Positions 37,567 to 62,187 of a DNA stretch of 64,000 nt are shown piece after piece. This DNA comes from a virus. The notes below the pieces were generated by a model. That model ran no database searches. It was not told where the DNA came from and saw nothing but the letters and a program-made list of their open reading frames with translations. Every line of letters starts with the position of its first letter. The first letter of the stretch is position 1. Position numbers and translations under genes: made by a program. The stretch is from positions 1-64,000 of IMG/VR virus record IMGVR_UViG_3300028829_004140. One strand, given 5' to 3'.

Positions 37567-37648
37567 TTTGTTTCTCCTAGTTTTTTCCAGACTGCCGTTT
37601 TTCAAGCGGTTATATTTTTGCCAAAGTCGCTATTCGTGTTGATCTGTT

Positions 37649-41509: not shown

Positions 41510-41552
41510 TATCTAACCTTTCTACTAAATTCCAAACCGGAGCGCATTTCAT
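41499..41552 (-). CDS. candidate 17-residue micro-ORF in the glycan locus
   Basis: ATG 41552 to TGA 41501-41499 encodes MKCAPVWNLVERLDNDF. It begins 6 nt after the preceding stop, with AAGGTGA upstream, and overlaps the start of the FkbM gene in another frame. It may couple translation between the two genes or be accidental. Confidence 0.25.
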   Translation of the reverse strand: MKCAPVWNLVERLDNDF

Positions 41553-41557
41553 AACTA

Positions 41558-44535: not shown

Positions 44536-45239
44536 TGCATATCCCCTATTCTGTCGATTTCTTTGATTTGCATACCATCCGGCTCTAAACATTCAAAGCT
44601 ACCACCTAATTTTATTACTTCGTTAATTATTTCGAAAGACAATTTTTTCTTATCTCTGTCTTCAAATTTTTGCATGATTGAATTGAGTAGTTTAAATTCT
44701 TTACCTGTAAAGAAAGCCATCTGTGCCCATTTCAAACTAAGACCGTATGAAAGTATAGAAGCTTTGCCTTTTACCTTCGTGACACCGATTTCTTCTTCTT
44801 TAATCATTTTTTTTGAATCAACAATTATAAAAGATTTAGAATATGGTAACTGTAGGGTTTTTTCGTTGAAAATAATGTCGCCATGACAAAACATTAAATT
44901 TTGATGGCATGAGTTATTTAAACCTAGACGTAGACTTTCAGAAGAATTTGTAGAGGCGTAGAGTTGATTCTCTACAAATCTAATGCCTGTATTTTTTTTC
45001 TGCCTCTTTATTACCTTCGTTGCATAGCATCCCACGACGGCTATTATTTCAACGTTATCAAAATAATTAATAACGTTACTAACCTGATTGTCGATAATAC
45101 TTTCACACTTGTTTAATTTTAACAAACTTCTAGGCTCATATGATTTAATTTTCTTTCCACAACCAGCAGCAAGAATCACAAAACTAAGTCTGTCTTCTTT
45201 TAAATTATTCTTTTTTATTTTTCTTACGTTTCTAGTCAT
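44532..45239 (-). CDS. sugar/alcohol-phosphate nucleotidyltransferase-like protein
   Basis: A 235-residue protein starting with a basic tail, then LSFVILAAGCGKKIKSYEPR, a version of the nucleotidyltransferase signature (LAAG.G.R....PK) in which Pro-Lys is Pro-Arg. NLMFCHGDIIFN fits the usual metal-binding segment. The family activates sugar, choline or inositol phosphates with CTP/UTP/GTP to feed glycosyltransferases. The substrate is not predictable, and the altered motif leaves some doubt about activity. It overlaps both neighbours. Confidence 0.6.
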   Translation of the reverse strand: MTRNVRKIKKNNLKEDRLSFVILAAGCGKKIKSYEPRSLLKLNKCESIIDNQVSNVINYFDNVEIIAVVGCYATKVIKRQKKNTGIRFVENQLYASTNSSESLRLGLNNSCHQNLMFCHGDIIFNEKTLQLPYSKSFIIVDSKKMIKEEEIGVTKVKGKASILSYGLSLKWAQMAFFTGKEFKLLNSIMQKFEDRDKKKLSFEIINEVIKLGGSFECLEPDGMQIKEIDRIGDMQ

Positions 45240-46012
45240 TACTTACCAGTAATTATTTTTGCGTTTTGTTGAAAAATTTCCGTAGTCATTTTCATAGATT
45301 GATTTCTTCCATGTTGGTTAGCGATGGCTAAACACTCTGGCACATGGGTAATCATACAAACCTTAGACAGTCTAAGCCATAAGTCATAGTCTTCTGTGCA
45401 ACCTATAAAGCCTTTACTAGCAGGACCGTGGAGTTCGGATCTATAAATCTCTCCATTAGGCATCCTTACTGCATCTAAGTATTCTTTTTTAATCAATGCG
45501 TTACTATGCACCATGCAATGCTGCCGCAAACCAGCCCTACTGTAAGAATCTTTGAACTCAAGCTTGGAATAATCCGGGAATACATTTTCGTAGTCTGCGT
45601 ATGCCACTCCTACTTCTTCGTGTTCGACAAGTTTGGCTACCAGCTTTTCAACCTTCTCTGGGTAGTAAGCGTCATCAGCATCTAGTACACCAATAATATC
45701 GGCCCAGTCCCAGCACATATCAATCGCTACATTACGGGCGACACTAGCACCAGAGTTTTCAATTCTTTTCCTAAAAAGGACACTATCTGTAACTTCCTCG
45801 ATAGTGTCCACCATTGGATTTCCGAATGGGTCTTTATCTTGAAAAAATCTCGTCCTTAAAATCTTTTCCCAAGAATCGTCAGATGATCCATCGTCTACAA
45901 CATACAAACGAAGCTCCCCTTTGTATGTTTGACCTATAATACTTTCTATGGCAGGAATAATGTAGTCCCCATAGTTATAATTCGCACAAATAATAGCAAC
46001 TTTAGGCAGCAT
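45239..46012 (-). CDS. GT2-family glycosyltransferase
   Basis: A 257-residue GT-A enzyme. VAIICANYNYGDYIIPAIES and LYVVDDGSSDDSWEKIL build the donor site. NSGASVARNVAIDMCWD and IIGVLDADDAYYPEKVEKLV hold the metal-binding DADD. The acceptor-side GCTEDYDLWLRLSKV carries the catalytic ED. ATG 46012 is preceded by GGGAGGAG; the frame extends upstream but without family similarity. This is a canonical member of the family. Confidence 0.88.
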   Translation of the reverse strand: MLPKVAIICANYNYGDYIIPAIESIIGQTYKGELRLYVVDDGSSDDSWEKILRTRFFQDKDPFGNPMVDTIEEVTDSVLFRKRIENSGASVARNVAIDMCWDWADIIGVLDADDAYYPEKVEKLVAKLVEHEEVGVAYADYENVFPDYSKLEFKDSYSRAGLRQHCMVHSNALIKKEYLDAVRMPNGEIYRSELHGPASKGFIGCTEDYDLWLRLSKVCMITHVPECLAIANQHGRNQSMKMTTEIFQQNAKIITGK

Positions 46013-46075
46013 AAAACTCCTCCCAAGTGTAAACAGTTTTTGTGCCGCCCCTTTTCTCGGCTGCAAGAACCTTAT

Positions 46076-46834
46076 TCAAGAAAAGAAGGATCGAGTATCA
46101 ACCATATCATCTTTGAAAACTTTTGCGCTATTTCCGTTTAAAAATTTAAACAGGAAGGCGGGAAATGTAAATCCCGAGAAAGGACTATCTGACTTCGGTA
46201 GTAGCATAACAATCTGCTTCATTTCTACGTTAACAAAATTATGGATTTTATTTAAGAAATTGTCAGGAACTTCGTCACCTGAAGTTAGACATTGTACCCA
46301 TCCATTTTGAAAATGAGTAAAAGTAGCGTCGATTATGGTAGATAAGTTCTTATGAGCTTGGTTTAATTGAACAATGTGATATTTGGTTACAGGGTCTTCT
46401 CCAAAGTAAGAAATAAACTTACCCCAAATATCTTCATTGTATTCAACCTTTTCCGTCACCACAATAATATATGGATGTTCTTTTCCGGTTGGTGTTTTTA
46501 TTTTTTTAATTGAAGCTAAGGTTTTATCAAGATCTTCAATTTCGTCACCCTTTGTATGATCTAATTTGATTATAAAACCTACTCTTGGAGCCACTTCTTT
46601 CATTGCGACTTCTTTAATATTCAGCCTGTCTTCGAATTCAAGATTGGAAATCCATTCTTCTGGACGGTAAGTATTGCAGAATCTTTCTAATGTAAAGGTT
46701 GTTTCGTCGGAAAGAGTTGAAAATCCTAGTTTTTCATGCCTTGCTAAATCGCAATCGACCTGCTTACCTCCCTCAAGCTTTGAGAAAACGCATCCTTCAC
46801 ATTTTGTTACTGGAGTTAATGATTCTGCCGACAT
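46076..46834 (-). CDS. unknown Cys-rich glycan-locus protein
   Basis: A 252-residue protein with an N-terminal cluster C12-x2-C15-x12-C28 and C53 (KCEGCVFSKLE, VDCDLARHE, RFCNTYRP), which suggests a metal site. The remaining 180 residues have GT-A-like alternation (GFIIKLDHTKG, PYIIVVTEKVEYNED, WVQCLTSGDEVPDNFLNK). The 'TSGDEVP..FL' segment sits where a GT2 metal motif would be. It may be a diverged glycosyltransferase with an added metal-binding head; I cannot assign it firmly. Confidence 0.45.
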   Translation of the reverse strand: MSAESLTPVTKCEGCVFSKLEGGKQVDCDLARHEKLGFSTLSDETTFTLERFCNTYRPEEWISNLEFEDRLNIKEVAMKEVAPRVGFIIKLDHTKGDEIEDLDKTLASIKKIKTPTGKEHPYIIVVTEKVEYNEDIWGKFISYFGEDPVTKYHIVQLNQAHKNLSTIIDATFTHFQNGWVQCLTSGDEVPDNFLNKIHNFVNVEMKQIVMLLPKSDSPFSGFTFPAFLFKFLNGNSAKVFKDDMVDTRSFFS

Positions 46835-47229
46835 TAATTTGCCCTCTTTATTTTAAGTTGGAATTGACTCCCGTTTTGAATAAACATACGGGTCAAGGTT
46901 GTGAAATTATTAGGAATCAGTGTTTCAAGATATTCTAAAGACAAAAAAGAATTAATTCTATTTCCATAAAGGTTAACATTAGGAATATGTACTTGCGAAG
47001 GATTGGAACGAAGAGAATTAACATATTTACCGAAGTTAAAAACGTCTAACTCCTGAAAACATATAGTGCCACCAATTCTTATCTTGGAAAGTAGAGTTTC
47101 AACAACCTTTGAAACTTCTTCTTCTTTGAATTGACACAGAAACCAATCGCAGTTTATCTCTGTAACAGGATTATCTTGAATGTTAAAAACACTCATTCCG
47201 CTACTGGCGTTATTTAGTTCTATCTTCAT
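46834..47229 (-). CDS. small methyltransferase-like fragment protein
   Basis: A 131-residue protein. The segment LLSKIRIGGTICFQELDVFN resembles the later strands of a class I methyltransferase ('l...LkpGG.l...e.d'), with no SAM-binding motif I present. It starts as ATGA overlapping the preceding gene, and the stop is in TAATG overlap with the next. It could be a degenerate or accessory methyltransferase subunit. Confidence 0.35.
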   Translation of the reverse strand: MKIELNNASSGMSVFNIQDNPVTEINCDWFLCQFKEEEVSKVVETLLSKIRIGGTICFQELDVFNFGKYVNSLRSNPSQVHIPNVNLYGNRINSFLSLEYLETLIPNNFTTLTRMFIQNGSQFQLKIKRAN

Positions 47230-48269
47230 CTAAATTCTCCAACGGTTTTGTAAAGTAATTTGCTCCAACTCTGTACAAATCTGTCAAGACTATATCTTTC
47301 TTCAATTGTTTTGCGTCCAGCCTCACCGATTTTGCGAGCGAGTTCTGGTTTATCTAACAACTCCCTACACCAGAATTTCATATCCGATGCGTTATCGGCT
47401 ATGATTCCGTTTACACCGTGTTCAATGATTTCTGGAATCATACACGTCCCTGTTGTTACAACAGGACAACCACACGCCATAGCTTCCATCATTACCGATG
47501 GCACGGGCGAGTGAAGCGATGTGTTTAAGAACACGGCAGCGGTTTGATAGATATCTCTTAGATGCTCCCTGCATTGAGCGGGTTGGGAAAATCCGGCATG
47601 TTCCCCTGTGCATTTTCCTACTACTCGATAAGGAGCAATAGGGCTGGATGCCACTTCTTTCCATAAGCTAAAGCCGCAACACCAATCTCTTGAAGGAAAC
47701 TCATTAACAACCGATAAGCAATAAAGTTCTCTCGATGTATTACTAGCTCCCCAACCCTGATTCCAAAACTCTGTATCAACACCATGCTCTACTACACTAC
47801 TATTATCTGCTGAAAAACCCCAAGTGTCACGATTAAACTCGGAAATAAAGGAATTGCTGGAAACAGGAATTTCGCCATATCCCTTTATTTGCTGTTGAAC
47901 ATCACCTCTGACATCTGGCAAAACATGGCAATGTCTAAGGATCGGTATTGCTGTTTTATTAGCTTGTCCCCTTGTCTCACTAAGGAGGTCATGAGCGACC
48001 TGTAGACGGTTGCAAGAGGTATGGCTTAGTACAATGTCTATATCTAGGTAGTCGGGCAGAGAGTCGATTATGTGGTAGTTCTCTGGAACCGGTGCATATG
48101 TAGTGTCCCACTCCTTGCCAACTCTTAGAGAGTAAAAGTTGTGTCCAGTTTTACATAGATTTTCTTCGTATCGCTCATGTGTGGCAAAAGTTAATATGTT
48201 CAGCTTCCGGTCTGATGTGGGCCGGTTCATAATTAACTTAACCGATTTAGCCGACGCTCTAGCTGTCAT
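47226..48269 (-). CDS. GT4-family glycosyltransferase
   Basis: A 347-residue GT-B enzyme with the donor-binding C-terminal half AAVFLNTSLHSPVPSVMMEA, continuing ACGCPVVTTGTCMIPEIIEH and GVNGIIADN. This is the standard 'P...EAma.G.PVv....g..e.i..g..G.lv' block of retaining GT4 enzymes, with the first Glu of E-x7-E replaced (SPVPSVMME). ATG 48269 has AAAGGG 7 nt upstream and overlaps the previous stop by 11 nt. Confidence 0.8.
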   Translation of the reverse strand: MTARASAKSVKLIMNRPTSDRKLNILTFATHERYEENLCKTGHNFYSLRVGKEWDTTYAPVPENYHIIDSLPDYLDIDIVLSHTSCNRLQVAHDLLSETRGQANKTAIPILRHCHVLPDVRGDVQQQIKGYGEIPVSSNSFISEFNRDTWGFSADNSSVVEHGVDTEFWNQGWGASNTSRELYCLSVVNEFPSRDWCCGFSLWKEVASSPIAPYRVVGKCTGEHAGFSQPAQCREHLRDIYQTAAVFLNTSLHSPVPSVMMEAMACGCPVVTTGTCMIPEIIEHGVNGIIADNASDMKFWCRELLDKPELARKIGEAGRKTIEERYSLDRFVQSWSKLLYKTVGEFR

Positions 48270-49344
48270 TTAATAGCCCTTTCATTTCTAATCCTACGGT
48301 TTTGTGGAAATATCCATTGGCAGCAGTCTTGCACTGGTTTGCAACATCTTGTTTTATTTCTGGAACTACTAATGTTTCATACATTTTTCGCATTGCTTTA
48401 GAAAGTTCCACTATGTCAATATCTTTCCAAGTTGATGCGGATGTATCAATGTCTGGAAGGGATTCTACTGCACCAAAACAAGGAACGTCTCTAGATGGCA
48501 CCGGAATACCAATAACCTGATCCATGCCGATTCCTTCGGTCCATATGCTGGGAATACCCATAAACAAAACCTCAAGCGAAGGAATACAAAAAGACTCTCC
48601 ACGACTTGGCATAACAAAACAGTCTATCTGACTAAGAATGTCAATGTATTCTTTTTGCGGCACTGATCCCGAAATTATGACCTCTTCTGAAAAATCTTTT
48701 GATAGCTTGAGTCCTTTTCTGATGTGGTTGCAATATTCTTGTACATCTTTTACGGATTTTTTTGAAGTTTTAATAAAAAGTCTTACACTATCTCTCCCGT
48801 CAAAAGTCATATGAAAAGCTCTGACAAAAGCTTGGATGTTTTTTCTTTCAATAAATTCACCCACAAACCCAAATACAAAGTTGTCTTTCATCTCTTGTAT
48901 CGCAACTTGACCACTGGGTTTATATTGAGTAGGGTTTAGAGAATATTTGGCGAGTCTTACTGGAACCTTAACATTGCTTTCTAGGCAGATTTTACGAGTT
49001 ACTTCATTAGGAACCCAAATCTCGTCCATCATGTTACAATTTCTTGCCCAGTCAGTTTGATTAAAGTTAGAGGATTCAGCGCAAAGAACTCCAATATTTT
49101 TATCAAATTTACTGTTGTAACAGTAATTGCTAGGAAGTGTATGTTGAATAACTATATTACAACCCGTTTGTTCCTTCTTCTCTAGGCTTTGCACGATCTC
49201 ATTTTGAACCCTGTCTTCCGCTTCGTATGTAATAGCCCTCGGAACAACATCTACTCCGGCAGTGTTAAGTGCAAGTATATTGTTTAGCGCGGCGTTACCC
49301 CAGCCAGTTCCGTCTTTGTAGTGACCTATGTATAATACTTTCAT
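48259..49344 (-). CDS. GT4-family glycosyltransferase
   Basis: A 361-residue GT-B enzyme. The start is KVLYIGHYKDGTGWGNAALN. FVFGFVGEFIERKNIQAFVR opens the donor half, and CFVMPSRGESFCIPSLEVLF carries the E-x7-E motif. An identical layout and adjacency to the previous GT4 suggest they act one after another on one chain. There is no membrane anchor, so it is cytoplasmic or peripheral. Confidence 0.85.
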   Translation of the reverse strand: MKVLYIGHYKDGTGWGNAALNNILALNTAGVDVVPRAITYEAEDRVQNEIVQSLEKKEQTGCNIVIQHTLPSNYCYNSKFDKNIGVLCAESSNFNQTDWARNCNMMDEIWVPNEVTRKICLESNVKVPVRLAKYSLNPTQYKPSGQVAIQEMKDNFVFGFVGEFIERKNIQAFVRAFHMTFDGRDSVRLFIKTSKKSVKDVQEYCNHIRKGLKLSKDFSEEVIISGSVPQKEYIDILSQIDCFVMPSRGESFCIPSLEVLFMGIPSIWTEGIGMDQVIGIPVPSRDVPCFGAVESLPDIDTSASTWKDIDIVELSKAMRKMYETLVVPEIKQDVANQCKTAANGYFHKTVGLEMKGLLNDS

Positions 49345-49982
49345 TATTCTAGCTTTTTAAATATCTCATGAAAAGTTATGTTATCTTCTGCTAAATGTCC
49401 CCACTCTTTAAAGAGTTCGTCATTTACATACCAGTCTTCTATTTTTTCATCCTCTCTTAATCCGACATTACCAAACAATATCTTGTATCCAAGGTCTTGA
49501 AATTTTTCTCTAGAGTAGTCCTTGTCCCCATCGTAAAACCCTTTAAAGTTTGGATTTCCTTCGGTGCTAAAGTTATGTTCATACGTCATAATCTTAAATG
49601 AATATTTGTTAAAATCGAACTCGTCTAATACTTTGCGTTGTGCCATGTCTACGTCAAAGGAAAGATAATCGAAGTGTTCTGGACAATCCCTTTCCGCAAG
49701 AACATCATTAATATTATGCTCCATAAGGTCGACACAATGCAAGCTCTTTCTATATTTAGAAGCGGAATCGTAATAAGTTTTGTCATAATCTAGCGCTATT
49801 CCCTGCCACTTAAAAACACTTTCCAAGGTCCAAGTATTACTCATAGAAGACCAGTGAGAGTATCTTAGATCTAAATCGCTAGTTCCACAACCTATGTCTA
49901 CAAAAAATCCCGGTTTGAATCTTGTTATCTTTGAAACAAATAAATCTTGACCAAACTGGCTGTAGAAATTAATTCGTTCCAT
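49344..49982 (-). CDS. FkbM-like methyltransferase
   Basis: A 212-residue SAM-dependent methyltransferase with YSQFGQDLFVSKITRFKPGF, then FFVDIGCGTSDLDLRYSHWS as motif I. A second acidic motif is IALDYDKTYYDSASKYRKSL, and FDYLSFDVDMAQRKVLDEFD corresponds to the FkbM signature (..lS.DvdG.e...l). It likely O-methylates a sugar in the glycan. It overlaps the next gene by 14 nt. Confidence 0.75.
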   Translation of the reverse strand: MERINFYSQFGQDLFVSKITRFKPGFFVDIGCGTSDLDLRYSHWSSMSNTWTLESVFKWQGIALDYDKTYYDSASKYRKSLHCVDLMEHNINDVLAERDCPEHFDYLSFDVDMAQRKVLDEFDFNKYSFKIMTYEHNFSTEGNPNFKGFYDGDKDYSREKFQDLGYKILFGNVGLREDEKIEDWYVNDELFKEWGHLAEDNITFHEIFKKLE

Positions 49983-50592
49983 TTATGTTCTCCATATAAA
50001 GCATACCGCTTCCAAATTCAGGCAACTTTTCATAGTCGATACCCTTTTCGTCTAAATACTTAATAAGATCAAGTGCTTTGGTTGGAACATCGTCTACCAA
50101 AACCGAGACAGTATCACCCTCGGAACTTTTGGCAATTTTTTCTACAGCAATGAACTGATTTAATGTTTGCACATGTGCGTCAGGTGTTTGTGAAATGTCT
50201 GCACCATCCAAATAATAAACGCCGCAGCGTGATACTTGTTGCAGGCTATCTAAGCCATCTCCGATTCTTAAATTAACCCTGTGGCTCAAGGAATTAGCTA
50301 AAAAAAATGAGTTTGCTATATGGTCAACATTAATGTCCGCAACATAATATTCACCGCCAAATTTTTTGGTATAAGATCCAAACCAAATATCGCTCCAGCC
50401 AGAACCCATTCTAAACTTGTCTTCAAAAGTTTCTATAGCACCTATCTGAAAAATATCAACAGGTTTTCCCTTGAATCTATCTAACGCTCTTTTAAAAAGA
50501 CTGTCTCTAAATGGCGGTGGAATTACTTTAAGGTTATCCCAAGTTACCTCATTTTGCATGTACTGAATAATCGCACTATTTTGCATTTGCAT
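49969..50592 (-). CDS. probable class I methyltransferase-like protein
   Basis: A 207-residue protein with VDIFQIGAIETFEDKFRMGS, a motif I-like glycine segment. GEYYVADINVDHIANSFFLA ends in the acidic position that normally binds SAM ribose, and VNLRIGDGLDSLQQVSRCGV is the third motif. Similar short proteins accompany FkbM genes in phage and bacterial glycan loci. The call is less certain than for the FkbM pair because motif I is modified. GAGGA lies 8 nt before the ATG. Confidence 0.55.
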   Translation of the reverse strand: MQMQNSAIIQYMQNEVTWDNLKVIPPPFRDSLFKRALDRFKGKPVDIFQIGAIETFEDKFRMGSGWSDIWFGSYTKKFGGEYYVADINVDHIANSFFLANSLSHRVNLRIGDGLDSLQQVSRCGVYYLDGADISQTPDAHVQTLNQFIAVEKIAKSSEGDTVSVLVDDVPTKALDLIKYLDEKGIDYEKLPEFGSGMLYMENINGTN

Positions 50593-52231
50593 TAATTTGT
50601 CCTCTTTGTCTTTCTAATTCGTTCCAATTTTGCCTCATGTTTGTTAGATCTCTTACAACGCCTTCCATGTTATAAGGTTGATACTTATTTTGCGAAGGAA
50701 GGTGGGATTCGTTGAAATAATAGTCATCTTCCGAGGGATTCACCCTGTATCCGAATGTGACATCTTTTATAACTTTAGACCAAAACCAGCCCCCAATCCA
50801 TTCGGGCTTGTGTAAAACATATTTAAATAGGTAACTTACCTGTTCTTCGGTTGAAACAATATTGTTAGGCATTGAAGTTGCTGGTTTAAGCACTTTTATT
50901 GGAGACATGTATGTTTTAGACCAGTCTTTTATCGGAATTGTTTTTAAATGCTCTATCCATACCTGAGCAGTTTTATCCCAGTCGTAGTGATTTCTGGATT
51001 TACTGTATATAGACTCTCCATTGTGTCCGTCATATTTTGTTTTATCACGTTTATTTTTATATGCATCTGCTATAACTTTAACCAACAAATCGTTATCGGC
51101 AATGGCTCTATAGCAACCCGTTTCACACTCCATAGAAAGTGCCAAAGGGTTCATCGCAATTCCTCCGATATTTTTCATAACTGAGTTCATGGCAGAGTAA
51201 TTAATGGCGGCCACAGGAACGCCACAAAACGCCGCTTCTAACTGAGGCATACCAAATCCTTCGCTATTAGCGTACTGAACATACAAATCAAATGTGTTGT
51301 ATATTTTGCTTAGTTCTGCGCCATCAACGGAGTTGTTTACGCCTATGAGTTTTTTCTTAAACTGTTTACATTTTCCGCAGTGACACATGGAGTCTCTGTA
51401 AAAGTCCATAGATACATCGCCGCAGTTTTTACACTTGTAACCGAAAAGGACTCTGTTTTCTAGTCCGAACCTGTTAAGAAGTTCAGGGATTTCCCATCCG
51501 ATGTCGGGATAAAAAACGTGACAGTAAAGGTAGGCTTCTGGGGTTTTGTTTTCGTCTAAGTATTGACGGAAGGCTTTAAACAAGTCTGGGTATAATTTTC
51601 TTCTTTGGTTTCTCATAACCGTTCCTACAAGAAATACACTTGAATCAAGTCCCATATCATCCTTGTGTTTATTCTTATCTGGAACCTTGTCAAATATTTC
51701 CTTGTTTGCACATGGAGGAGCTATTCCGACAAAGTTAATAGAATCACTTTGCCTAAGAAGTGTATCCCTACCAAATTCAGAGTAGCTCAAAACAGAATCC
51801 GCAGAAGCGAACGTATTTATCCACATAGGATTTTGTGGAAATGCGTCTACCGTTGGCATAATTGCCCAATGAAAAAAGTCTCTGTATGGCGACCTCTGCT
51901 GGAATTCAAACATCCACCAGTCTCTAATATCCATAACAATATCAGGCTTAAAGTCTATCAATACACTGTTGAAAGTGTTTTCCCCAAAAATTCTAGACGG
52001 ACTACTTATGTATGATTGAAAGTCTTCGTCGGAATCAAGAGGTCGATTTGGATATACTTTCCAAGGAGAGTTGGCAATTCTTATGTCTTTTCTGTCAACA
52101 TGAGTAGCCAGCTCCGCAACTTGAAATTCTTCTACCTTGTTTAATCTTGATAGAATCTCTTTACCGTAAACAGAGTATCCGGTTCCTTGCCAATGGGCTT
52201 CATTGACCCAAAGTATTCTTTTTTTTCTCAT
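50576..52231 (-). CDS. GT4-family glycosyltransferase with inserted Cys cluster
   Basis: A 551-residue GT-B enzyme. Residues 1-200 form the acceptor half (RILWVNEAHWQGTGYSVYGK). The donor half carries ANSEGFGMPQLEAAFCGVPV (about 321-340, E324-x7-E332). Between them, residues 267-288 contain five Cys, C267-x2-C270-x12-C283-x-C285-x2-C288, in a segment FGYKCKNCGD to GKCKQFKKK. This looks like an inserted zinc ribbon. Such an insertion is not usual for GT4 enzymes and may bind acceptor or partner. The last ~110 residues are unassigned. It overlaps the SSB stop by 4 nt. Confidence 0.8.
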   Translation of the reverse strand: MRKKRILWVNEAHWQGTGYSVYGKEILSRLNKVEEFQVAELATHVDRKDIRIANSPWKVYPNRPLDSDEDFQSYISSPSRIFGENTFNSVLIDFKPDIVMDIRDWWMFEFQQRSPYRDFFHWAIMPTVDAFPQNPMWINTFASADSVLSYSEFGRDTLLRQSDSINFVGIAPPCANKEIFDKVPDKNKHKDDMGLDSSVFLVGTVMRNQRRKLYPDLFKAFRQYLDENKTPEAYLYCHVFYPDIGWEIPELLNRFGLENRVLFGYKCKNCGDVSMDFYRDSMCHCGKCKQFKKKLIGVNNSVDGAELSKIYNTFDLYVQYANSEGFGMPQLEAAFCGVPVAAINYSAMNSVMKNIGGIAMNPLALSMECETGCYRAIADNDLLVKVIADAYKNKRDKTKYDGHNGESIYSKSRNHYDWDKTAQVWIEHLKTIPIKDWSKTYMSPIKVLKPATSMPNNIVSTEEQVSYLFKYVLHKPEWIGGWFWSKVIKDVTFGYRVNPSEDDYYFNESHLPSQNKYQPYNMEGVVRDLTNMRQNWNELERQRGQINANAK

Positions 52232-52551
52232 TGAACAATAATCTTAAAAGAGGAAACTCTGAAATATGTAGTAAGCGATACTTCGCTGGAATCATCCTGC
52301 TGCCAAGATTCTTCGTTTCGGGCACTGGATTCTACAGCCATTATAGACCCTGTTTTGGCATATTTATTAATCGCTAGAGCAGCAGAGTCCCAAGCTTCGA
52401 AGGCAAGATATGTGAAATTTTTTACCTTTTCTCCGTTTGAGTCTTTTCTAAACTCTTCTATTTCTAAATCAAAGTTGACACATGACACACCGTTTACATT
52501 TACCAACTCTGGACCGTGTGATATTTTGCCCAAAAACATACATTTGTTCAC
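52228..52551 (-). CDS. single-stranded DNA-binding protein
   Basis: A 107-residue SSB with an OB fold from residue 2: MNKCMFLGKISHGPELV opens it, then NFDLEIEEFRK, and the strand KNFTYLAFEAWDSAALAINK with the 'W..tAe.i..yl.KG..i.v.g' pattern typical of the family. No acidic C-terminal tail is present, so partner recruitment differs from E. coli SSB. It lies next to the polymerase C-terminal gene, with a start overlap to the large glycosyltransferase. It binds single-stranded replication and recombination intermediates. Confidence 0.82.
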   Translation of the reverse strand: MNKCMFLGKISHGPELVNVNGVSCVNFDLEIEEFRKDSNGEKVKNFTYLAFEAWDSAALAINKYAKTGSIMAVESSARNEESWQQDDSSEVSLTTYFRVSSFKIIVQ

Positions 52552-52563: not shown

Positions 52564-54141
52564 TCAAATCTGTGTTGCTTTATTAACAATGAACGAACCT
52601 TTACTAACTTCGCCATGCAATAATACTGTATTACCCTCAATTAAAACGTCTTTGTTTTCTTTATAACAGTCTGGAAAGATTACAACATCTTCTAGATCGC
52701 CGGAACCATCTTCTACGCTAAGAAAAGCCATTTCTTGTCCGGGGTTCTTTCCGTTTTTAGTTTGTACAATTTTCATACGAGATATTTCAACAGCAAGAAT
52801 TACTTTACCTGTTATCACACCTTTTGCCACATCTTGACACATATTTGTTGAATTAATTATATCTAATCCGTCAACTTTGCTACAAGTAAGTGGTGATGCA
52901 AGAAATTTTTCTTCGTCTATCGCAACAGTAAGTGCATTGTCATTTATGTCATAAAATGGATTGTCTAAGGAGTCTTTTATATCTTTAACGGTTTCCATTC
53001 TCTTTGCATTAATCTTTAATCCTCTACCCTCGATTAAATGGCCTATCGCCTGAGAAAGATCCTTTGCGAATACAGACGGTTCGCCTGATTTGTAATTGGA
53101 AACAATAGTTTTTCGCTCTCTTTCAGTCAACTTTTTCCAAGAGTCAAACTCATAAAGCATTTTTTGTCGAGAGTTTAAGTTATTCCTACCGTTAAATCCC
53201 CCTACAGAAATCAATGCGATTGTGGACCTTTTGTTTAATCGAAGATCGTTAATGATAAAAAAAAGACAATCTAACCAGCTAAAATCTTGGATTTCCCTGT
53301 CTTTCATAAAATCCATAATCTTCTTGGTTTCTATGCTGCCTACGTTTTTAACATGGTTAATTCCGTAGTATATAACGTTTTTCTTTTTATCTCTAGAAAA
53401 ATCCGCAACTAAATGTTGCAGTCTAGGTGGAAGCACTTCGATGTTTGCCTTCTTGGCGTCATTTATTAGTTGTTTTTTTTCTTCGTCTGGATAAGGTTTT
53501 CTATTCGCTCTATTTAAATAAGTATTGTAGAATTTATTTCTACGATGAAACTTACAATAGGCAGACCAGTAAGCTAGGTATGCATAAGAGACTGCGTGAG
53601 ATTTATTGAAAGCGTACCTACTAGACTTTTCGATCCATGAGAATATTTCTTCCGCGACACCAAGACTTATTTCACCTTTTTTTTCTACGCCATCCATAAA
53701 CTCCTTCTTAACAGATGCCATAACATCTGCCTTCTTCTTTCCGATAGCCTTGCGTAGCGAATCAGCTTGTACTCCGTTAAAGCCTGCTAGTTTTTGAACG
53801 ATAGCCATAGACTGTTCTTGGTAAACAAGAACGCCATATGTTTCTCTTAGGATAGGCTCTAGTGACTCATGTAGGTACTCGACAGGAGCATCGCTTTTTC
53901 CAGCTTTTCTATCTGCATAGACCTGTGTCATGCTTTTTCCGTTGGCATCTTTCGCCATAAGAGTTCCGGGTCGAATAAGACTGATAAGTGCCGCAAGATC
54001 TTTTCTATTTCTAGGCTTTGTCTCTTTTGCCCAATGTCTACCCAAATGTGATTCTAGCTGGAAGACGCCTTTTGTATCACCTTCGCATAGCAAGTCCCAA
54101 ACATTTTCATCGTCAAAATCGTTAATGTCAAAATTAGTCAT
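52564..54141 (-). CDS. dnaE: DNA polymerase III alpha (DnaE-type), C-terminal half
   Basis: A 525-residue protein corresponding to the second half of DnaE. It starts MTNFDINDFDDENVWDLLCE, just before the conserved GVFQLESHLGR. FNKSHAVSYAYLAYWSAYC (about 200-220) is the 'FNKSHS.aYa...y' block of the fingers region. Helix-hairpin-helix sequence follows, and an OB domain ends the protein (about 440-525, KNGKNPGQEMAFLSVEDGSG). The palm aspartates are absent here and lie in the separate gene at 55944-57545. The two products must assemble to give a working polymerase. The catalytic gene is transcribed first. Confidence 0.88.
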   Translation of the reverse strand: MTNFDINDFDDENVWDLLCEGDTKGVFQLESHLGRHWAKETKPRNRKDLAALISLIRPGTLMAKDANGKSMTQVYADRKAGKSDAPVEYLHESLEPILRETYGVLVYQEQSMAIVQKLAGFNGVQADSLRKAIGKKKADVMASVKKEFMDGVEKKGEISLGVAEEIFSWIEKSSRYAFNKSHAVSYAYLAYWSAYCKFHRRNKFYNTYLNRANRKPYPDEEKKQLINDAKKANIEVLPPRLQHLVADFSRDKKKNVIYYGINHVKNVGSIETKKIMDFMKDREIQDFSWLDCLFFIINDLRLNKRSTIALISVGGFNGRNNLNSRQKMLYEFDSWKKLTERERKTIVSNYKSGEPSVFAKDLSQAIGHLIEGRGLKINAKRMETVKDIKDSLDNPFYDINDNALTVAIDEEKFLASPLTCSKVDGLDIINSTNMCQDVAKGVITGKVILAVEISRMKIVQTKNGKNPGQEMAFLSVEDGSGDLEDVVIFPDCYKENKDVLIEGNTVLLHGEVSKGSFIVNKATQI

Positions 54142-54274
54142 CTTTTTTACTTTCTTTCAACTCTTGTTGAATTCTCTTTTGTTCTTTGTAAAAATCTTCT
54201 AGTTCTTCAATATTTATCATGAAAAAATTTCCATGAACATCGTTAACTCTGATGGTTTTTTTGTTATCTGACAT
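54134..54274 (-). CDS. 46-residue protein between exonuclease and polymerase C-half
   Basis: A short frame from ATG 54274 to TAA 54134, encoding 46 highly charged residues (RVNDVHGNFFMINIEELEDF, then a Lys/Gln/Glu-rich helix). GGAG lies 6 nt upstream, inside the end of the exonuclease gene, and the stop overlaps the polymerase C-half start by 8 nt, the usual packing here. The amphipathic end suggests a helical partner protein. It is too small to classify, but packing and ribosome-binding site make it a likely real gene. Confidence 0.6.
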   Translation of the reverse strand: MSDNKKTIRVNDVHGNFFMINIEELEDFYKEQKRIQQELKESKKDD

Positions 54275-54953
54275 ACAAATCTCCAGAACCAAAGGCTTTT
54301 TCAAAAGTTATTTTCTTGGACAGGTTTCTCTGCATTTTTAAGAATTTGATAAGAATATTGGCCGTATCTTTAACGTCTTGCAAAGCATCGTGAGCGTTGT
54401 CTTTCGGTAGACCAAAATAATCTCGCATGTAATCCATACTATATCCTTTGCAGTCTGTGTTGTTTTCAAACCAGCAATATATATGCTGCATTAGATCCAT
54501 TGTAAAGATCGGATTAAAAAGTGTCTGTTGGTTCTTTTTTTCATTCCAAGGTCCATACTCTTTGCACATTCTATTCACAATTGGCATATCGTAACCATTG
54601 ATATTGAAACCCGCAGCTATTGGAGCAGTCCAGCTAGTACCCTTCCAGTTAAACTTGTCGCAAAACTTGTCAAACTTGTTCCAGACGGTTTTTGGTTTTG
54701 GTCCCTTGCTGATTTCTTCTCTTGTTTTCCTAGTTACCTCTAAAGCCTTTTCCTCTATTGGATCAAAGCCCGCCTCTACAGCTTTTTCGTCGTCAACAAT
54801 GCAGCGAATCTTACTTTCAAAAACTCCTCCCGGCTGTAGTTCTAACTTTCTAGCGTGAATAGCTACTGCGGCGATTTGAGTTGGTTGGCACTTGTATGGA
54901 TTTTGACCAGTGGTTTCAAAGTCAAATACGATAATATCTCTGTAATTAGCCAT
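54264..54953 (-). CDS. DnaQ-like 3'-5' exonuclease
   Basis: A 229-residue exonuclease. Exo I motif FDFETTG (10-16, D11 and E13), Exo II in AGFNINGYDMPIVNRM, and Exo III in NAHDALQDVKDTANIL (His-x4-Asp) give the complete DEDDh active site. It is therefore predicted to be active and is the likely proofreader of the split polymerase. It lies between the two polymerase genes, in the same operon. It is followed by the 46-residue protein. Confidence 0.88.
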   Translation of the reverse strand: MANYRDIIVFDFETTGQNPYKCQPTQIAAVAIHARKLELQPGGVFESKIRCIVDDEKAVEAGFDPIEEKALEVTRKTREEISKGPKPKTVWNKFDKFCDKFNWKGTSWTAPIAAGFNINGYDMPIVNRMCKEYGPWNEKKNQQTLFNPIFTMDLMQHIYCWFENNTDCKGYSMDYMRDYFGLPKDNAHDALQDVKDTANILIKFLKMQRNLSKKITFEKAFGSGDLYVR

Positions 54954-55008
54954 CTTTTCCTCGTTATTATGATTTAGCTTCTACGATTTCTTAAATTAAT
55001 GATTGTTT

Positions 55009-55722
55009 CTAGTTATATACTATAAACTTTTTTGGAGTATAGTACAAGTTAAAATCTGGATGATTAACTATTTCCCTACAGAAAGTCCCATCTTCTCCTA
55101 GTGGCATATTCTCTTTATACTTGAAATGTTGTGCAGAGGATGCTCTGATAGAAATAGGTCCGTGTGCAACGGGCTGCTTGTTTTTAGTCATTACATTTGT
55201 TCTAGGGATGTTAAACCATCCTTCTGGAACAGGGTCTGGATTTGGTTCTACCAATATTATAGGCTCCACGTTTAAAACATCCTTATCGTTAACCGACTCC
55301 CAGATAGGAAACAATTCTCCCCGACTATAGTTATGAACAAGTGCATCCACATCGGGATTCACGAAAACCTTTTTGACAAATTCGCATTTTTTAGGATGAA
55401 TATCGTCGTCAACATCGCAAAAAGAAATAACCTCATCATCGTCCCGGTTGTGAGAAGTGAGGATGTAGGAAAATGAACCTTTGTTTCTAGCCCATCCCGG
55501 AAGCTTTCTTGTTGGCGAGGTCGTGATACTATATTCATCAAACCATCTACCTAGTCTTTGGCACAGTGCGTGGGCAACTTCGGTTCTATCTAATAATCCG
55601 CTTCCCACAAAGGTTACTTTTTCAGGTTGCATACTTTGAGCGGCAATAAAATTAACACATCTCTCTAATAAGTGCCAATCTTTATCACAAAATGTTATGC
55701 AAAAATTTGATTTTATAGTCAT
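55009..55722 (-). CDS. GT2/GT-A-like glycosyltransferase inserted between polymerase halves
   Basis: A 237-residue protein with a GT-A beginning (SNFCITFCDKDWHLLERCVN) and a metal-binding DXD in EVISFCDVDDDIHPKKCEFV (about 97-116). The acceptor-side NMPLGEDGTFCREIVNHPDF holds an ED. It is unrelated to replication, yet lies between the polymerase N-half and the exonuclease. It is probably a glycan-locus gene that moved here by recombination. Confidence 0.65.
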   Translation of the reverse strand: MTIKSNFCITFCDKDWHLLERCVNFIAAQSMQPEKVTFVGSGLLDRTEVAHALCQRLGRWFDEYSITTSPTRKLPGWARNKGSFSYILTSHNRDDDEVISFCDVDDDIHPKKCEFVKKVFVNPDVDALVHNYSRGELFPIWESVNDKDVLNVEPIILVEPNPDPVPEGWFNIPRTNVMTKNKQPVAHGPISIRASSAQHFKYKENMPLGEDGTFCREIVNHPDFNLYYTPKKFIVYN

Positions 55723-55732
55723 TTACTGAAAT

Positions 55733-55951
55733 TCACTTTTTTAAAGAGATGAATTGATCTACGGCTTCATCTAAAGTTCTGAAAAGTTTGCTGTAATTAT
55801 GACGCTTGCTATAGACTTGATACTTATTTTTTGGTACACGTAATGATGTAACCATCGTGTCCTGTAGGTTGCAAAGAGATACTCCTTTAAACTCAATAGA
55901 GCATCCATCATATATGATTTCTTTGTAAAGTAATTTTTGTGCGTTATTCAT
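55733..55951 (-). CDS. 72-residue unknown protein after polymerase N-half
   Basis: A small basic protein starting MNNAQKLLYKEIIYDGCSIE and ending FRTLDEAVDQFISLKK. The start used here, ATG 55951, overlaps the polymerase N-half stop by 8 nt; a longer in-frame start 36 nt upstream is possible. The helix-strand pattern suggests a compact alpha/beta fold. Placement directly after the catalytic half makes a linker or accessory subunit role conceivable, but nothing proves it. Confidence 0.5.
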   Translation of the reverse strand: MNNAQKLLYKEIIYDGCSIEFKGVSLCNLQDTMVTSLRVPKNKYQVYSKRHNYSKLFRTLDEAVDQFISLKK

Positions 55952-57545
55952 TTTTGCATATCTCCATGATTTTTGATAATAAGTCAATTCCTAAAACGTC
56001 GAATTTAACGTGTCCCTGTTTTTCAAGGGGGTTCATTTCAAAAGCAACGATTGGATCACCGTTTTTATCAACCGTCATCGGACAAACGTCCGAAAGTTTA
56101 TGTTTTGAAATAATTACACCAGCAGGATGTTTTCCTTGTGATTTATTAGTTCCTTCGATATTTATAGCTTGGGTAAAGATGTCCTTCATAGGACCGTCTA
56201 ATTTTCCATCTTCATTAATGTAACAGTAGTTTTTAAGTTTTTCTGGTTGGTGTTCCAAGGCCCATAGAATTACAGACTTGCTATCCATTAACTCTAGCTG
56301 ATCGGAAATTAATTGCTCGTCAGGCAGAGCCGCTGTCATTTCGTTGATTTCGGCAAAACTAGAAGCTTCATTTACTCTACAAACCTCTTTTATTGCAGAC
56401 CTTCCTTGTAGCCTGCCCATTGTAATCATTTGTGCAACATTTGATTCTCCATACTTTTCCTTGATGTACGAGATTACATCATCCCTATATTCTGCCGGAA
56501 CATCCATATCAATATCAGGAATTGCCACATTATCTTCTGTATTACGTCCTTCATTATAAAAACGCTCAAAGAGAAGATCAAACTCAACAGGATCAACGTC
56601 TGTGATTCCTAAAAGATATGATATCAAGCAACCAGCGGCAGATCCTCGACCCGGACCAGCGAGCCAACCTTGTGATTTAACCCATCGAATAATATCCTGA
56701 ACGATCAAAAAGTAACCAGAAAGCTGTGCTTTAAAAATAACCTTTAGTTCGTGTTTGATTTGTTTCGTATAGCGATCCTTGTCTTCTTGGGTAGTAATCT
56801 TTTCTGTGCCTACAAGTCTTGATTTCCAGCCCTCTCTACATAATTCTGTGAGATAATCATCCTCGCTGATTCCGTCAGGACATGGAAAGGTAGGGAATGA
56901 TGGTTTATCAGCAAGGTCGTATTCTTCGCATTTATCCACAATTCGCCAAATATCATTTTGACCCTCAGTAAAGCAAATCTTGGTAAATTCTTGGTTTTGG
57001 TTTTTTAGGTGAAACGTTCCATAGCTTTTATGAAGAGGATCGAAGAACTGCTCATAATCGTGTTCTAAGTTATTTACCTTCTTTAGTGTGGTTTTCATCT
57101 TGCCACATAACATGATTCTATGACACTCAGCGTCACTTTCATCTACATAATAGATTGCCTGCGACTCATAATCAAGCTGTACATGATTGCTTTTAAAAAG
57201 GTTGGCAAATCCATTTTTTTCTGCGGTAACACAAAGTACATTTCCTCGACTGGCAACATCTTTAAGAACATTGAGAGTCTGGTTTGATACATACTTTACA
57301 AGGTCGAACCATCCATCCTTATTTTTGGCGTAAAGAATATAGCCATCAAACTCGCATCCAATAATTGGCTTGATACCATTTTGCTTACATTCCTGTTGGA
57401 AATCTACGGCCCCGGAAAGCGTGCCAAAATCAGCTATTCCACAAGCCGTATACCCATACTCCGCACAGCGTTTTGCTAATTTATCAGCCTTGCAAAACCC
57501 GTGCTGTAAAGAAAAGTGAGTTTTGCAGTTAACTGGGTTCCACAT
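55944..57545 (-). CDS. dnaE: DNA polymerase III alpha (DnaE-type), N-terminal catalytic half
   Basis: A 533-residue protein with an N-terminal PHP domain and the palm. LAGPGRGSAAGCLISYLLGI, then VEFDLLFERFYNEGR and AIPDIDMDVP supply the first two catalytic Asp (D344, D346, equal to E. coli D401/D403). VKFDVLGI near the C-terminus supplies the third (D516, E. coli D555). The protein stops 17 residues later, and the rest of DnaE is in the gene at 52564-54141. PHP His ligands are lost: the 'H.H' motif reads KTHFS and 'TDH' reads ADFG. ATG 57545 follows GAGGA. A near-consensus sigma70 promoter precedes it. Confidence 0.9.
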   Translation of the reverse strand: MWNPVNCKTHFSLQHGFCKADKLAKRCAEYGYTACGIADFGTLSGAVDFQQECKQNGIKPIIGCEFDGYILYAKNKDGWFDLVKYVSNQTLNVLKDVASRGNVLCVTAEKNGFANLFKSNHVQLDYESQAIYYVDESDAECHRIMLCGKMKTTLKKVNNLEHDYEQFFDPLHKSYGTFHLKNQNQEFTKICFTEGQNDIWRIVDKCEEYDLADKPSFPTFPCPDGISEDDYLTELCREGWKSRLVGTEKITTQEDKDRYTKQIKHELKVIFKAQLSGYFLIVQDIIRWVKSQGWLAGPGRGSAAGCLISYLLGITDVDPVEFDLLFERFYNEGRNTEDNVAIPDIDMDVPAEYRDDVISYIKEKYGESNVAQMITMGRLQGRSAIKEVCRVNEASSFAEINEMTAALPDEQLISDQLELMDSKSVILWALEHQPEKLKNYCYINEDGKLDGPMKDIFTQAINIEGTNKSQGKHPAGVIISKHKLSDVCPMTVDKNGDPIVAFEMNPLEKQGHVKFDVLGIDLLSKIMEICKNE

Positions 57546-58757: not shown

Positions 58758-59698
58758 TGATTGGCCTTTATTGTATGAACAGTTTTTTTACCATTGGTGA
58801 CAGTAGCGGCTCCTAACCATCCCCAGTCATTAAGCGTTTTGATTATTTCTTTACAAACTTCATGAATTTCCATATTTTTATTATCAATTAAACAATCCAC
58901 AAAATCCCAGTTTTCTTTAATCTCTTTTTCGCTAGAGTGAGTATCTCCGTAGATATCTCTTGTGTGTCCTATTACTTTACCTCCGACCTCTTGGATAGCC
59001 AAGATTTCATTTTTGAAACGACAGTCGTCAATCACCGCTAACAATGGACGTTCTTCTTCGATATCTTTTAACGTTCTTTTTATCCAAACGGGTTCCCAGA
59101 TTTTACGCATAACGTCTGTGCCAAAGAATTGCATAAATTCACGGGCGGTCATTGGGCCTGCGGCGTGATATGTTAAATTGATTCTAGCAAGGTCTTTTTG
59201 CATTTCCTCATTGCCATATTCACTATCACTAGGAAACCAATCGCACAACAAATTGCCCCATTCTTCTTCAAGAATCTCCTTAGTAGCAATTCCCGGCATG
59301 TTTTCCCATCTTAGGTGAGGAACAATCTGGTCTTTATAAGCATTGCTGCCATAACACTGCTCGTAAGTAAGTCCGAACAAAGACATACAGATACTCTTCA
59401 AAGAATCTGCAAAGGAATACTTTTTAACAAAGGGCCACATATTATACATAGCCCATTCAACAAATTCAGGATCTCGCCTAGAGATATCCATAAAGGTGTC
59501 ACCCTGTTCAATTTTACCACCACTATCTACAATCTCTGTGTTAACAATCAACCTACCAGTATCTGGAGCTATTCCAAAGTTTTGGATAACTTCTTGGGCG
59601 CGTAACTGATACCCGTGAAGGAAGTTACATGCGGTAGTTTTTCCTGACTGTTTCGATCCAGCAAAGGCAAGTATTCTAGTTTCTGATTGATTATTCAT
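58754..59698 (-). CDS. deoxynucleoside monophosphate kinase
   Basis: A 314-residue P-loop kinase. GSKQSGKTT (14-22) binds ATP. TAREFMQFFGTDVMRKIWEP and LLAVIDDCRFKNEILAIQEV match the dNMP-kinase block seen in T4 gp1-type enzymes, which phosphorylate dNMPs for DNA synthesis. The segment YEQCYGSNAYKDQ fits the lid area. It sits between primase and nuclease genes, in the replication operon, and overlaps both by 4-8 nt. The call rests on conserved order of motifs. Confidence 0.8.
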   Translation of the reverse strand: MNNQSETRILAFAGSKQSGKTTACNFLHGYQLRAQEVIQNFGIAPDTGRLIVNTEIVDSGGKIEQGDTFMDISRRDPEFVEWAMYNMWPFVKKYSFADSLKSICMSLFGLTYEQCYGSNAYKDQIVPHLRWENMPGIATKEILEEEWGNLLCDWFPSDSEYGNEEMQKDLARINLTYHAAGPMTAREFMQFFGTDVMRKIWEPVWIKRTLKDIEEERPLLAVIDDCRFKNEILAIQEVGGKVIGHTRDIYGDTHSSEKEIKENWDFVDCLIDNKNMEIHEVCKEIIKTLNDWGWLGAATVTNGKKTVHTIKANQ

Positions 59699-60803
59699 TA
59701 CTTTTCCTTGTAAACGGTAGATAGGGTATAATTTCTTTTTTAATGTCTTCGCTTGTCATTTGTCCCAAGTCGCGCTGCTTTATTGGGATATCCTTACTGT
59801 CAAACCAGCTATCTAATTCTGGCCTGAAGTAATTGAATCTCCTACCACATTTTTTAATTATGGAATCAGCAGACTTCTTTCCAGCTTCATCGTAATCTGT
59901 TAGTATGACAACATTAAGCGCTCCTGACGATTCTAGCAGTATTAATTGATCTTCACTTAGTGATGTTCCAAATATTCCTACTGTCATGTCTAAACCAGAC
60001 TCAAATGCTCGCCAAACATCACCTTGACCTTCTACCAAAATAACTGTTTTAGTTTCAAGTATATTGCTTTTGGCGTAATTTAGTCCATAAAGAATATTCT
60101 TAGTGAATCCTTTGCTATGTAGCCATTTTGGCTGTAGATGTTCTTTAATGGCTCTACCAACACATCCTACATAGTTATTATCTTCATCATATAAGGGTAC
60201 AACAACTCTTCCTGACATTGGCTGATTTTCAACAGTGCATTCTCCAATATCAAATTTTTCTAATATATCTACGCTGTGCCCTCTTCCTACAAAATATTGC
60301 GAAGGAATATTTAGTTTGTTTCTAATTGAAGACCTCGTAAATTGAGACTCCTTCCTTGCAATCTTCCTGTTAAACACGTCTACTGTTCGACTACTTCTGT
60401 CAACAAAGCTAGACTCTATTTCTTCTATGTCAGTGTCTAAAAACCAACAAATAAAAGAAGCGGTTTCAAGCATAGAAATATCTTTGTTTCTATGTCGCTT
60501 CAAACATCCCCGAACAAAACCAAAAAGGTTTCCGATATGTTCTTCCTCGCAGTGATTTGTCCAGCAAGACCAGTTTCCAGTGTTTGATTCGCCGTCAGTA
60601 AATATACAGCAACCTTCTGGATTGTCACCTCCATGAATAGGGCAAGCAAAGGCCAATCTATTTGGAAACTCTACCCAGTTTACGCCGAAATAATCTAATA
60701 ACTGTTTTGATTTTGGAAGCAGGGCTTCACAGAGTGACGATATTTTCTTCTTCGTCAAATTCTTCGGTTTCAAAACCCTGTTCTCTTGTTCTCGAATTAT
60801 CAT
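59691..60803 (-). CDS. DnaG-type DNA primase
   Basis: A 370-residue primase. A CHC2-type zinc finger uses C54-x2-H57 (CPIHGG) and C80-x4-C85 (CWTNHC). The TOPRIM domain has VILVEGQGDVWR (acidic Glu) and VVILTDYDEAGKKSADSIIK (DxD). It lacks the DnaB-binding C-terminal domain of cellular DnaG. ATG 60803 has AGGA upstream and lies inside the helicase gene, giving a 77 nt overlap. It makes RNA primers at the phage fork. Confidence 0.88.
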   Translation of the reverse strand: MIIREQENRVLKPKNLTKKKISSLCEALLPKSKQLLDYFGVNWVEFPNRLAFACPIHGGDNPEGCCIFTDGESNTGNWSCWTNHCEEEHIGNLFGFVRGCLKRHRNKDISMLETASFICWFLDTDIEEIESSFVDRSSRTVDVFNRKIARKESQFTRSSIRNKLNIPSQYFVGRGHSVDILEKFDIGECTVENQPMSGRVVVPLYDEDNNYVGCVGRAIKEHLQPKWLHSKGFTKNILYGLNYAKSNILETKTVILVEGQGDVWRAFESGLDMTVGIFGTSLSEDQLILLESSGALNVVILTDYDEAGKKSADSIIKKCGRRFNYFRPELDSWFDSKDIPIKQRDLGQMTSEDIKKEIIPYLPFTRKSNE

Positions 60804-62187
60804 GTATCTCGTTCCTAGTTAAACCCTGCTGGATTCTTCCAAACTTACCGAACATTTTCATACTAATATAATCTCCATCATCTAGTCCCTCTCCATGTCT
60901 AGCAACGACAGGTACAATCTTTCTGTCTCCATTCTCAGGACCATCCTCCGCTTTTTCTTCGTCTGATTTTAATTTAAAGATTGAAAAACTAGTACAGAGC
61001 CATACAAGCCTGTCAGAACCAGAAACAACGTCCGTAGTTTCTTTTGTAATTCCATCCCTGTTGAGTTGAACAAACGCCAAACACGCAACATCATATTTAA
61101 CCACAAAGTTGTGCAGTTTGGTAATTTGAAAACCGAGAACCTGATACTCTTGCATTGCAGCGTTAATACCCTCTGAACCCATTAGTTTCAGATAGTCATA
61201 AACAATAACACAATCTTTTGTTCTACCAGACTCATCGAATCCTACATGCTGGTAAATCCATTTTCTCATTTGAGAAATAATGTTTTCGAAAGACTCTCCT
61301 GCAATACTGATGTAGTGATATGGAATTTCTTTTAGTCTTTGCGCCGCATTTTGAACCTTTTCTTTTTCTATTTCACTTTCGCTAAAACGACCAGTAGAAA
61401 TTCTGTTGATTTCTACACCAGACTCATCAGCCAACATTCTGTTGTAGTGATCTTCTTTAGACATTTCTGTGTCTAAAACTAAAACTGGAACATTAACTTC
61501 AGATGCTACGTATTTCGCTACAGCGTCACCAAGCATAGACTTGCCGACCTTGGGCCTAGCAGCAACTAGATCAACGCATTTTCTACGCAAGCCACCGCCG
61601 ATAGCAGCATCTAACGCAGGGAAGCCTGTAGGTATGCCTACGAAGTCGGACACGTTATCAGATAAGAAATCTAAATAATCCTCTATGCCATCTCCAAGCA
61701 GTTCGGTTTTCTTACTAGAAGATTTGTATATGTCACCAGTCGCATCTAGAAGAGGCTCTTCAATCTTGGACACAATGTCCATTATATCCTCTTCCCCACT
61801 TACCTTGCCCAGCTCTTTTTCACAAGCTTTTAGTGTTTGAGACAAGTCTCTAGCAAGTTTTAGTTTCGCTATTTTCGCTGCGTATGATCCTACGTTTTGT
61901 TTTGTTATTGGGAAATTAAACAAAGAACGTACAAAGGATATCTCATCCTTAGAGTTCATCTGCTCAGATACGCCTAAATCATTCGCAGCAGATAAAATTG
62001 AAGATAATTCTACCTGAGTATTTTCAGAAATTGATTTGTATATGCAATCGAATAATAGCTGATTCATAGGATCTGTAAAAGATCTTGATTCTATGAAATC
62101 AACTTCTAGATAAGCATCTAAACCATATTGGCAAAGTGCAGCTAATACAGCTCTTTCTGATGCTAAGTCGCTCAATTTTTTATTCAT
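60727..62187 (-). CDS. DnaB-type replicative helicase
   Basis: A 486-residue hexameric helicase. Residues 1-110 form the N-terminal helical domain (ERAVLAALCQYG, a DnaB-like start). The RecA-like domain begins near 180 (IPTGFPALDAAIGGGL). Walker A is RPKVGKSM (211-218). LVLDTEMSK (237-244) and CVIVYDYLKLMGSEG carry the H1a and Walker B strands. It loads with the primase whose gene starts inside its 3' end, so their production is probably coupled. The acidic C-terminus (EEFDEEENIVTL) may bind partners. Confidence 0.92.
   Translation of the reverse strand: MNKKLSDLASERAVLAALCQYGLDAYLEVDFIESRSFTDPMNQLLFDCIYKSISENTQVELSSILSAANDLGVSEQMNSKDEISFVRSLFNFPITKQNVGSYAAKIAKLKLARDLSQTLKACEKELGKVSGEEDIMDIVSKIEEPLLDATGDIYKSSSKKTELLGDGIEDYLDFLSDNVSDFVGIPTGFPALDAAIGGGLRRKCVDLVAARPKVGKSMLGDAVAKYVASEVNVPVLVLDTEMSKEDHYNRMLADESGVEINRISTGRFSESEIEKEKVQNAAQRLKEIPYHYISIAGESFENIISQMRKWIYQHVGFDESGRTKDCVIVYDYLKLMGSEGINAAMQEYQVLGFQITKLHNFVVKYDVACLAFVQLNRDGITKETTDVVSGSDRLVWLCTSFSIFKLKSDEEKAEDGPENGDRKIVPVVARHGEGLDDGDYISMKMFGKFGRIQQGLTRNEIHDNSRTREQGFETEEFDEEENIVTL

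What the first reader, a model, noticed from the sequence alone, without database searches (positions are those of the whole stretch)
52564..57545. Replicative DNA polymerase III alpha encoded by two separated genes
Seen: the product of 55944-57545 contains PHP and palm and stops 17 residues after the third catalytic Asp (VKFDVLGI). The product of 52564-54141 begins just before the next conserved block (GVFQLESH) and runs to the OB domain. Together they cover DnaE with only about 10 poorly conserved residues missing, so this is a clean division, not decay. Known: cellular DnaE is one chain; the split in cyanobacteria uses an intein at another site. Inferred: the halves assemble non-covalently, and the split lies within a surface loop.
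Basis: partly seen in the sequence, partly recalled or inferred. Interest (0 to 1): 0.85.

Follow-up and report, generated by a model that had tools for sequence, protein, structure and literature searches.

The report
Phage replicative polymerase in two pieces
A large family of uncultured phages makes its DNA-copying enzyme (a bacterial-type DNA polymerase III) as two separate proteins cut cleanly between the palm and the fingers, with the proofreading gene between the two halves and no sign of any splicing to rejoin them.

Summary
Window 55944-57545 (-) encodes PHP, palm and thumb (533 aa); 52564-54141 (-) encodes fingers, HhH and OB (525 aa). Separate AlphaFold models align to E. coli DnaE 5-572 (Z 26.6) and 581-1073 (Z 21.6). 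The pair spans 41 residues between the third catalytic Asp and the next conserved block; unsplit DnaE spans 41 or more, so nothing need be missing. The same cut occurs in 95 IMG/VR contigs from 79 metagenomes and 5 MAG contigs, always as N half, DnaQ-like exonuclease, C half, usually with a ~70-aa ORF after the N half. The split enzymes form one fully supported branch; dN/dS is 0.03-0.09 in most close pairs; the genome record has no PolA, PolB or beta-clamp hit. No intein or intron lies at the junction, while two relatives carry a real split intein elsewhere, in the fingers. Most likely the halves assemble non-covalently into the phage replicase; assembly was not tested. Closest known: the minimal two-gene Pol III alpha of jumbo phages (other cut site, genes 33 kb apart), T4-type 43A/43B, cyanobacterial split-intein DnaE. 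New variant of a known kind.

The parts
55944..57545 (-). dnaE-N: PHP + palm + thumb of DNA polymerase III alpha, 533 aa, with all palm metal ligands (D344, D346, D348, D516)
52564..54141 (-). dnaE-C: fingers + HhH + OB fold of DNA polymerase III alpha, 525 aa; ends where the OB fold ends, no tau-binding domain
54264..54953 (-). DnaQ/RNase T-family 3'-5' exonuclease (DEDDh residues conserved); the only gene found between the halves in every relative
55733..55951 (-). SM1: 72-aa ORF of unknown function, overlaps the end of dnaE-N; in all split loci except L124, L126, L127, L128
   Evidence: no hit in Pfam, PHROGs or PDB
55009..55722 (-). 237-aa ORF, glycosyltransferase-like by eye; present only in the window and a few close relatives, so a later insertion
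   Evidence: no Pfam or PHROG hit
54134..54274 (-). 46-aa ORF overlapping both the exonuclease stop and the dnaE-C start
   Evidence: read from the sequence
52228..52551 (-). single-strand DNA-binding protein directly after dnaE-C
59691..60803 (-). Toprim/DnaG-like primase of the same replication block
60727..62187 (-). DnaB-like replicative helicase of the same replication block

Best explanation
This is a C-family (DnaE-type) replicative DNA polymerase permanently encoded as two proteins in a large, uncultured clade of phages. The N protein brings PHP, palm and thumb with all catalytic metal ligands; the C protein brings fingers, HhH and OB. The two most likely fold on their own and dock non-covalently at the palm-fingers boundary to form the active site, and the DnaQ-like exonuclease encoded between them supplies proofreading. 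Shown: the cut, its conservation, selection on both halves, the fold of each half, absence of splicing elements at the junction. Inferred: physical assembly, polymerase activity, the exonuclease as partner, and origin by one fission of a single-chain dnaE.
For: Same cut and gene order in 95 viral contigs from 79 metagenomes plus 5 MAG contigs; one branch with SH-aLRT 100; dN/dS 0.03-0.09 in most close pairs, both halves; N and C distances correlate across 39 loci, r 0.91, 0 of 2000 permutations; catalytic residues invariant; confident models matching consecutive parts of E. coli DnaE; linker length complete without extra sequence; no PolA, PolB or beta clamp found in the record; no intron family at the junction and no intein model on the halves.
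Against: No direct evidence of assembly or activity. The genome record may be incomplete, so another polymerase could be missed. Correlated distances also follow from mere linkage. The segment of C at about 345-430 and the missing tau-binding domain leave the link to a clamp unexplained.
Confidence: 0.85

Rival explanations
1. The halves are joined after translation by protein trans-splicing, as in cyanobacterial DnaE.
For: Split inteins do occur in this clade: L004 and L013 carry one inside the C gene.
Against: The window halves carry no intein sequence at either end; N has 17 residues after the third Asp and C 24 before GVFQLES, all DnaE-like. No intein model matched them.
Confidence: 0.02
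2. The gap is an intron or is removed at RNA level, giving one protein.
For: Self-splicing introns are common in phage polymerase genes (own knowledge).
Against: No intron family in Rfam matches. The gap varies from about 0.8 to 3 kb, holds conserved genes with their own starts, and both halves have conserved stop and start codons.
Confidence: 0.02
3. The arrangement is an assembly error or a decaying gene.
For: Single metagenome contig if taken alone.
Against: 79 independent metagenomes, identical cut, low dN/dS.
Confidence: 0.01
4. The halves do not form one enzyme; each acts alone or with host DnaE parts.
For: Assembly was not tested; both halves give confident stand-alone models.
Against: Neither half has a complete active site alone, yet residues of both parts are invariant; they are always found together in one block with the exonuclease.
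Confidence: 0.1

Closest known systems
Minimal split Pol III alpha of jumbo phages, group 2.2 (Iyer et al. 2021, PMC7824862)
   Same: A phage Pol III alpha in two separate genes, proposed to reassemble.
   Different: There the enzyme is minimal (CBB pieces match families of 171 and 197 aa), has no PHP, the genes lie 33 kb apart, the cut lies before the catalytic DxD, and a family B polymerase is also present. Here it is near full length, in one block, cut after the third Asp, and no PolB was found.
Split family B polymerase 43A/43B of Aeromonas T4-type phages (reviewed in PMC2988022)
   Same: A phage replicative polymerase in two genes; there the two proteins co-purify and are active.
   Different: Unrelated polymerase family; the break there holds a homing endonuclease gene or an untranslated insert, here a conserved exonuclease gene.
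Cyanobacterial split-intein DnaE
   Same: DnaE in two genes.
   Different: There the halves are ligated by a split intein in the fingers (own knowledge); here no intein, other site. L004 and L013 carry a split intein near the cyanobacterial site in addition.
Single-chain phage DnaE, such as Moorella phage MTATph1, Geobacillus phage GBK1, Bacillus phage vB_BpsS-36
   Same: Homologous over both halves, same domain order, about 25-35% identity.
   Different: One uninterrupted gene across this junction in every isolate phage examined.

Membership tests
C-family (DnaE-type) DNA polymerase | Palm of Pol-beta-like fold with three catalytic Asp | tested here: met
   D344, D346 and D516 invariant, model matches E. 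coli DnaE 5-572, Z 26.6
C-family (DnaE-type) DNA polymerase | Fingers, HhH and OB regions of DnaE | tested here: met
   PF17657 and HHH_6 matches, model matches 581-1073; the OB hit is below the Pfam cut-off
C-family (DnaE-type) DNA polymerase | N-terminal PHP domain | tested here: met
   PF02811 match; metal motif degenerate in the window, intact in early-branching relatives
C-family (DnaE-type) DNA polymerase | Polymerase activity | not testable with these tools
   needs an assay
Two-chain DnaE held together non-covalently | Physical association of the two chains | not testable with these tools
Cyanobacterial-type split-intein DnaE | Intein fragments at the broken ends | tested here: not met
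   none at the window junction
Jumbo-phage group 2.2 minimal split Pol III alpha | Minimal enzyme without PHP, cut before the DxD motif, genes far apart | tested here: not met
   PHP present, cut after third Asp, genes 1.8 kb apart
Homing-endonuclease-split phage polymerase (43A/43B type) | Endonuclease gene or remnant in the break | tested here: inconclusive
   No endonuclease gene recognised in the window gap; HNH-like ORFs in the gap of L053 and L055 only by eye

The most novel reading that the evidence does not exclude
A naturally two-chain C-family replicase whose active site forms only when palm and fingers meet, with the exonuclease and the conserved 72-aa protein encoded between the halves as true subunits, so that assembly itself could be a control point of phage replication.
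Probability: 0.25. Interest if true: 0.75.

Novelty: new variant of a known kind. Interest (0 to 1): 0.58.

Why it matters
DnaE is the catalytic core of bacterial replication and is otherwise one chain outside intein-split cyanobacteria (own knowledge). A clade-wide, splice-free division at the palm-fingers boundary shows that this junction tolerates a permanent break, offers a natural split C-family polymerase for mechanistic work, and adds a second, differently placed division of this enzyme in phages. In the held papers I found no report of this cut.

Tried and rejected
Rfam search for introns across the region: only two sub-threshold chance hits. The C half as a single query in viral contigs found only the identical contig; the alignment query worked but was capped at the best 80 of 466 relatives, so more distant ones were not read. 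SM1 against Pfam, PHROGs and the PDB: nothing; my impression of an AP2-like fold is unsupported. Large ORFs of the rest of the window against PHROGs were mostly unassigned, so the phage's taxonomy is open. Kazlauskas and Venclovas on viral replicases is not held, so an earlier mention of this split there cannot be excluded. Contigs binned as Lokiarchaeota (L127, L128) were considered as archaeal viruses; a neighbouring phage sigma-factor-like gene points instead to a phage in a wrong bin. Homing endonuclease as the cause of the break: HNH-like ORFs occur in the gap of only a few relatives, so not favoured.

Full report
What is there. On the minus strand the order is dnaE-N (57545-55944), a 72-aa ORF called SM1 here (55951-55733), a 237-aa ORF (55722-55009), a DnaQ/RNase T-family exonuclease (54953-54264), a 46-aa ORF (54274-54134), dnaE-C (54141-52564) and an SSB (52551-52228); upstream lie nuclease, dNMP kinase, primase and helicase genes. 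Several neighbours overlap by a few bases: dnaE-N with SM1, and the 46-aa ORF with both the exonuclease and dnaE-C. This suggests one co-translated block (read directly).

The cut. Profile matches place N on E. coli DnaE from residue 9 to about 565, and C from 591 to 889 and on the OB region. AlphaFold models of each half, made with 43- and 42-sequence alignments, are confident (pLDDT 89.4 and 90.2). VIA-align matches N to E. coli 5-572 (2hnh, Z 26.6, rmsd 2.9, 487 aligned) and C to 582-910 (2hnh, Z 17.3) or 581-1073 (5fku, Z 21.6 with rmsd 8.9, as domain positions differ). The break is thus between about 572 and 581, between a C-terminal helix of N (521-532) and a loop of 11 residues before the first helix of C. 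The third Asp and GVFQLES are 17 + 24 = 41 residues apart in the window pair; single chains have 41-49 (phage) or 46-76 (bacteria). C ends at the end of the OB fold, so the tau-binding domain of E. coli DnaE is absent; C residues of about 345-430 were poorly matched by PDB chains, and I recognised no clamp-binding motif.

How widespread. Searches of IMG/VR and of species genomes gave 95 viral contigs from 79 metagenomes, one of them identical to the window here, and 5 MAG contigs that hold N and C in separate frames. Every one has the exonuclease gene between the halves. SM1 is present in all but L124, L126, L127 and L128. Identity to the window falls to 38% (N) and 39% (C), so the arrangement is old. 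86 other loci, bacterial and phage, carry DnaE without a break at this point. On a tree of 31 split and 28 single-chain enzymes the split ones form one side of a branch with SH-aLRT 100 and the trait changes once. The tree is unrooted, with several long single-chain branches, so the exact sister is not resolved. Isolate phages match only weakly, with best identities of about 35%, and those inspected are single-chain.

Function. Both halves keep the residues a polymerase needs: GPGRGS, D344, D346, D348 and D516 in N, and the fingers motifs LRKAIGKK and FN-SH in C, are invariant. dN/dS among close pairs is 0.03-0.09, with one pair of near-identical sequences at 0.16. The record has no PolA, PolB or beta-clamp match, though it may be incomplete. 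The simplest reading is a two-chain replicase with proofreading by the neighbouring exonuclease, whose DEDDh residues are conserved. The PHP metal motif is HLHTH/TDHG in members such as L108-L123 but NCKTH/ADFG in the window's group, which has also lost about 100 residues of N: the PHP nuclease seems to have decayed while the separate exonuclease was kept (inference).

Splicing. No intron family matches, and no intein model matches the window halves. L004 and L013 show what an intein would look like: their C gene is broken again at FNK|SH, with CLSPKT...EIMCID ending the first piece and ...FYGDGI[AV]TSN opening the second. Their DnaE is therefore three genes, two of which should be ligated by trans-splicing while the palm-fingers break stays open (inference).

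Compared with the known. A two-gene Pol III alpha is already described for group 2.2 jumbo phages (PMC7824862). I located both pieces in phage CBB: they match PHROG families of 197 and 171 aa and lie 33 kb apart. The latter matches N only up to profile position 335, before the catalytic DxD, so the cut is elsewhere. The family B enzyme of T4-type phages shows that two-gene phage polymerases can work (PMC2988022). Surveys of phage and bacterial polymerases (PMC11348598, PMC12926913) do not mention the present cut in the passages found. The case is a new variant: a different enzyme form and cut site, clade-wide, with a conserved exonuclease gene in the gap.

Origin. Two routes are open: insertion of the exonuclease gene into an intact dnaE, or a break by a homing endonuclease that was later lost. 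I favour the first, because the exonuclease is the one gene always present; HNH-like ORFs occur in only a few relatives.

Noticed in passing
L004:3569-6440, L013:8925-11778: The C gene of these two relatives is broken a second time by a split intein at FNK|SH (intein_Nterm model over its cut-off), so DnaE is spread over three genes.
   Followed up: yes
L037, L041, L042: DnaE without the palm-fingers break, but with intein-like sequence and two frames about 1 kb or less apart at the same fingers site; L042 also has one near the palm motif.
   Followed up: partly
L038:5998-9155, L039:5381-8538: DnaE interrupted at another fingers site, with a LAGLIDADG endonuclease ORF in the gap.
   Followed up: partly
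L108-L123 against window 55944-57545: The PHP metal motif is intact in one part of the clade and lost in the window's part, together with about 100 residues.
   Followed up: partly
L127, L128 (Lokiarchaeota MAG), L124 (SAR202 MAG): Split DnaE on contigs binned with an archaeon and a SAR202 bacterium; a phage sigma-factor-like gene on L127 suggests phage contigs in these bins.
   Followed up: partly
window 55733-55951: Conserved 72-aa ORF of unknown function right after the N half in nearly all relatives.
   Followed up: partly
window 36000-52231: Long run of minus-strand ORFs beside the replication genes; several look like glycosyltransferases or methyltransferases by eye.
   Followed up: no
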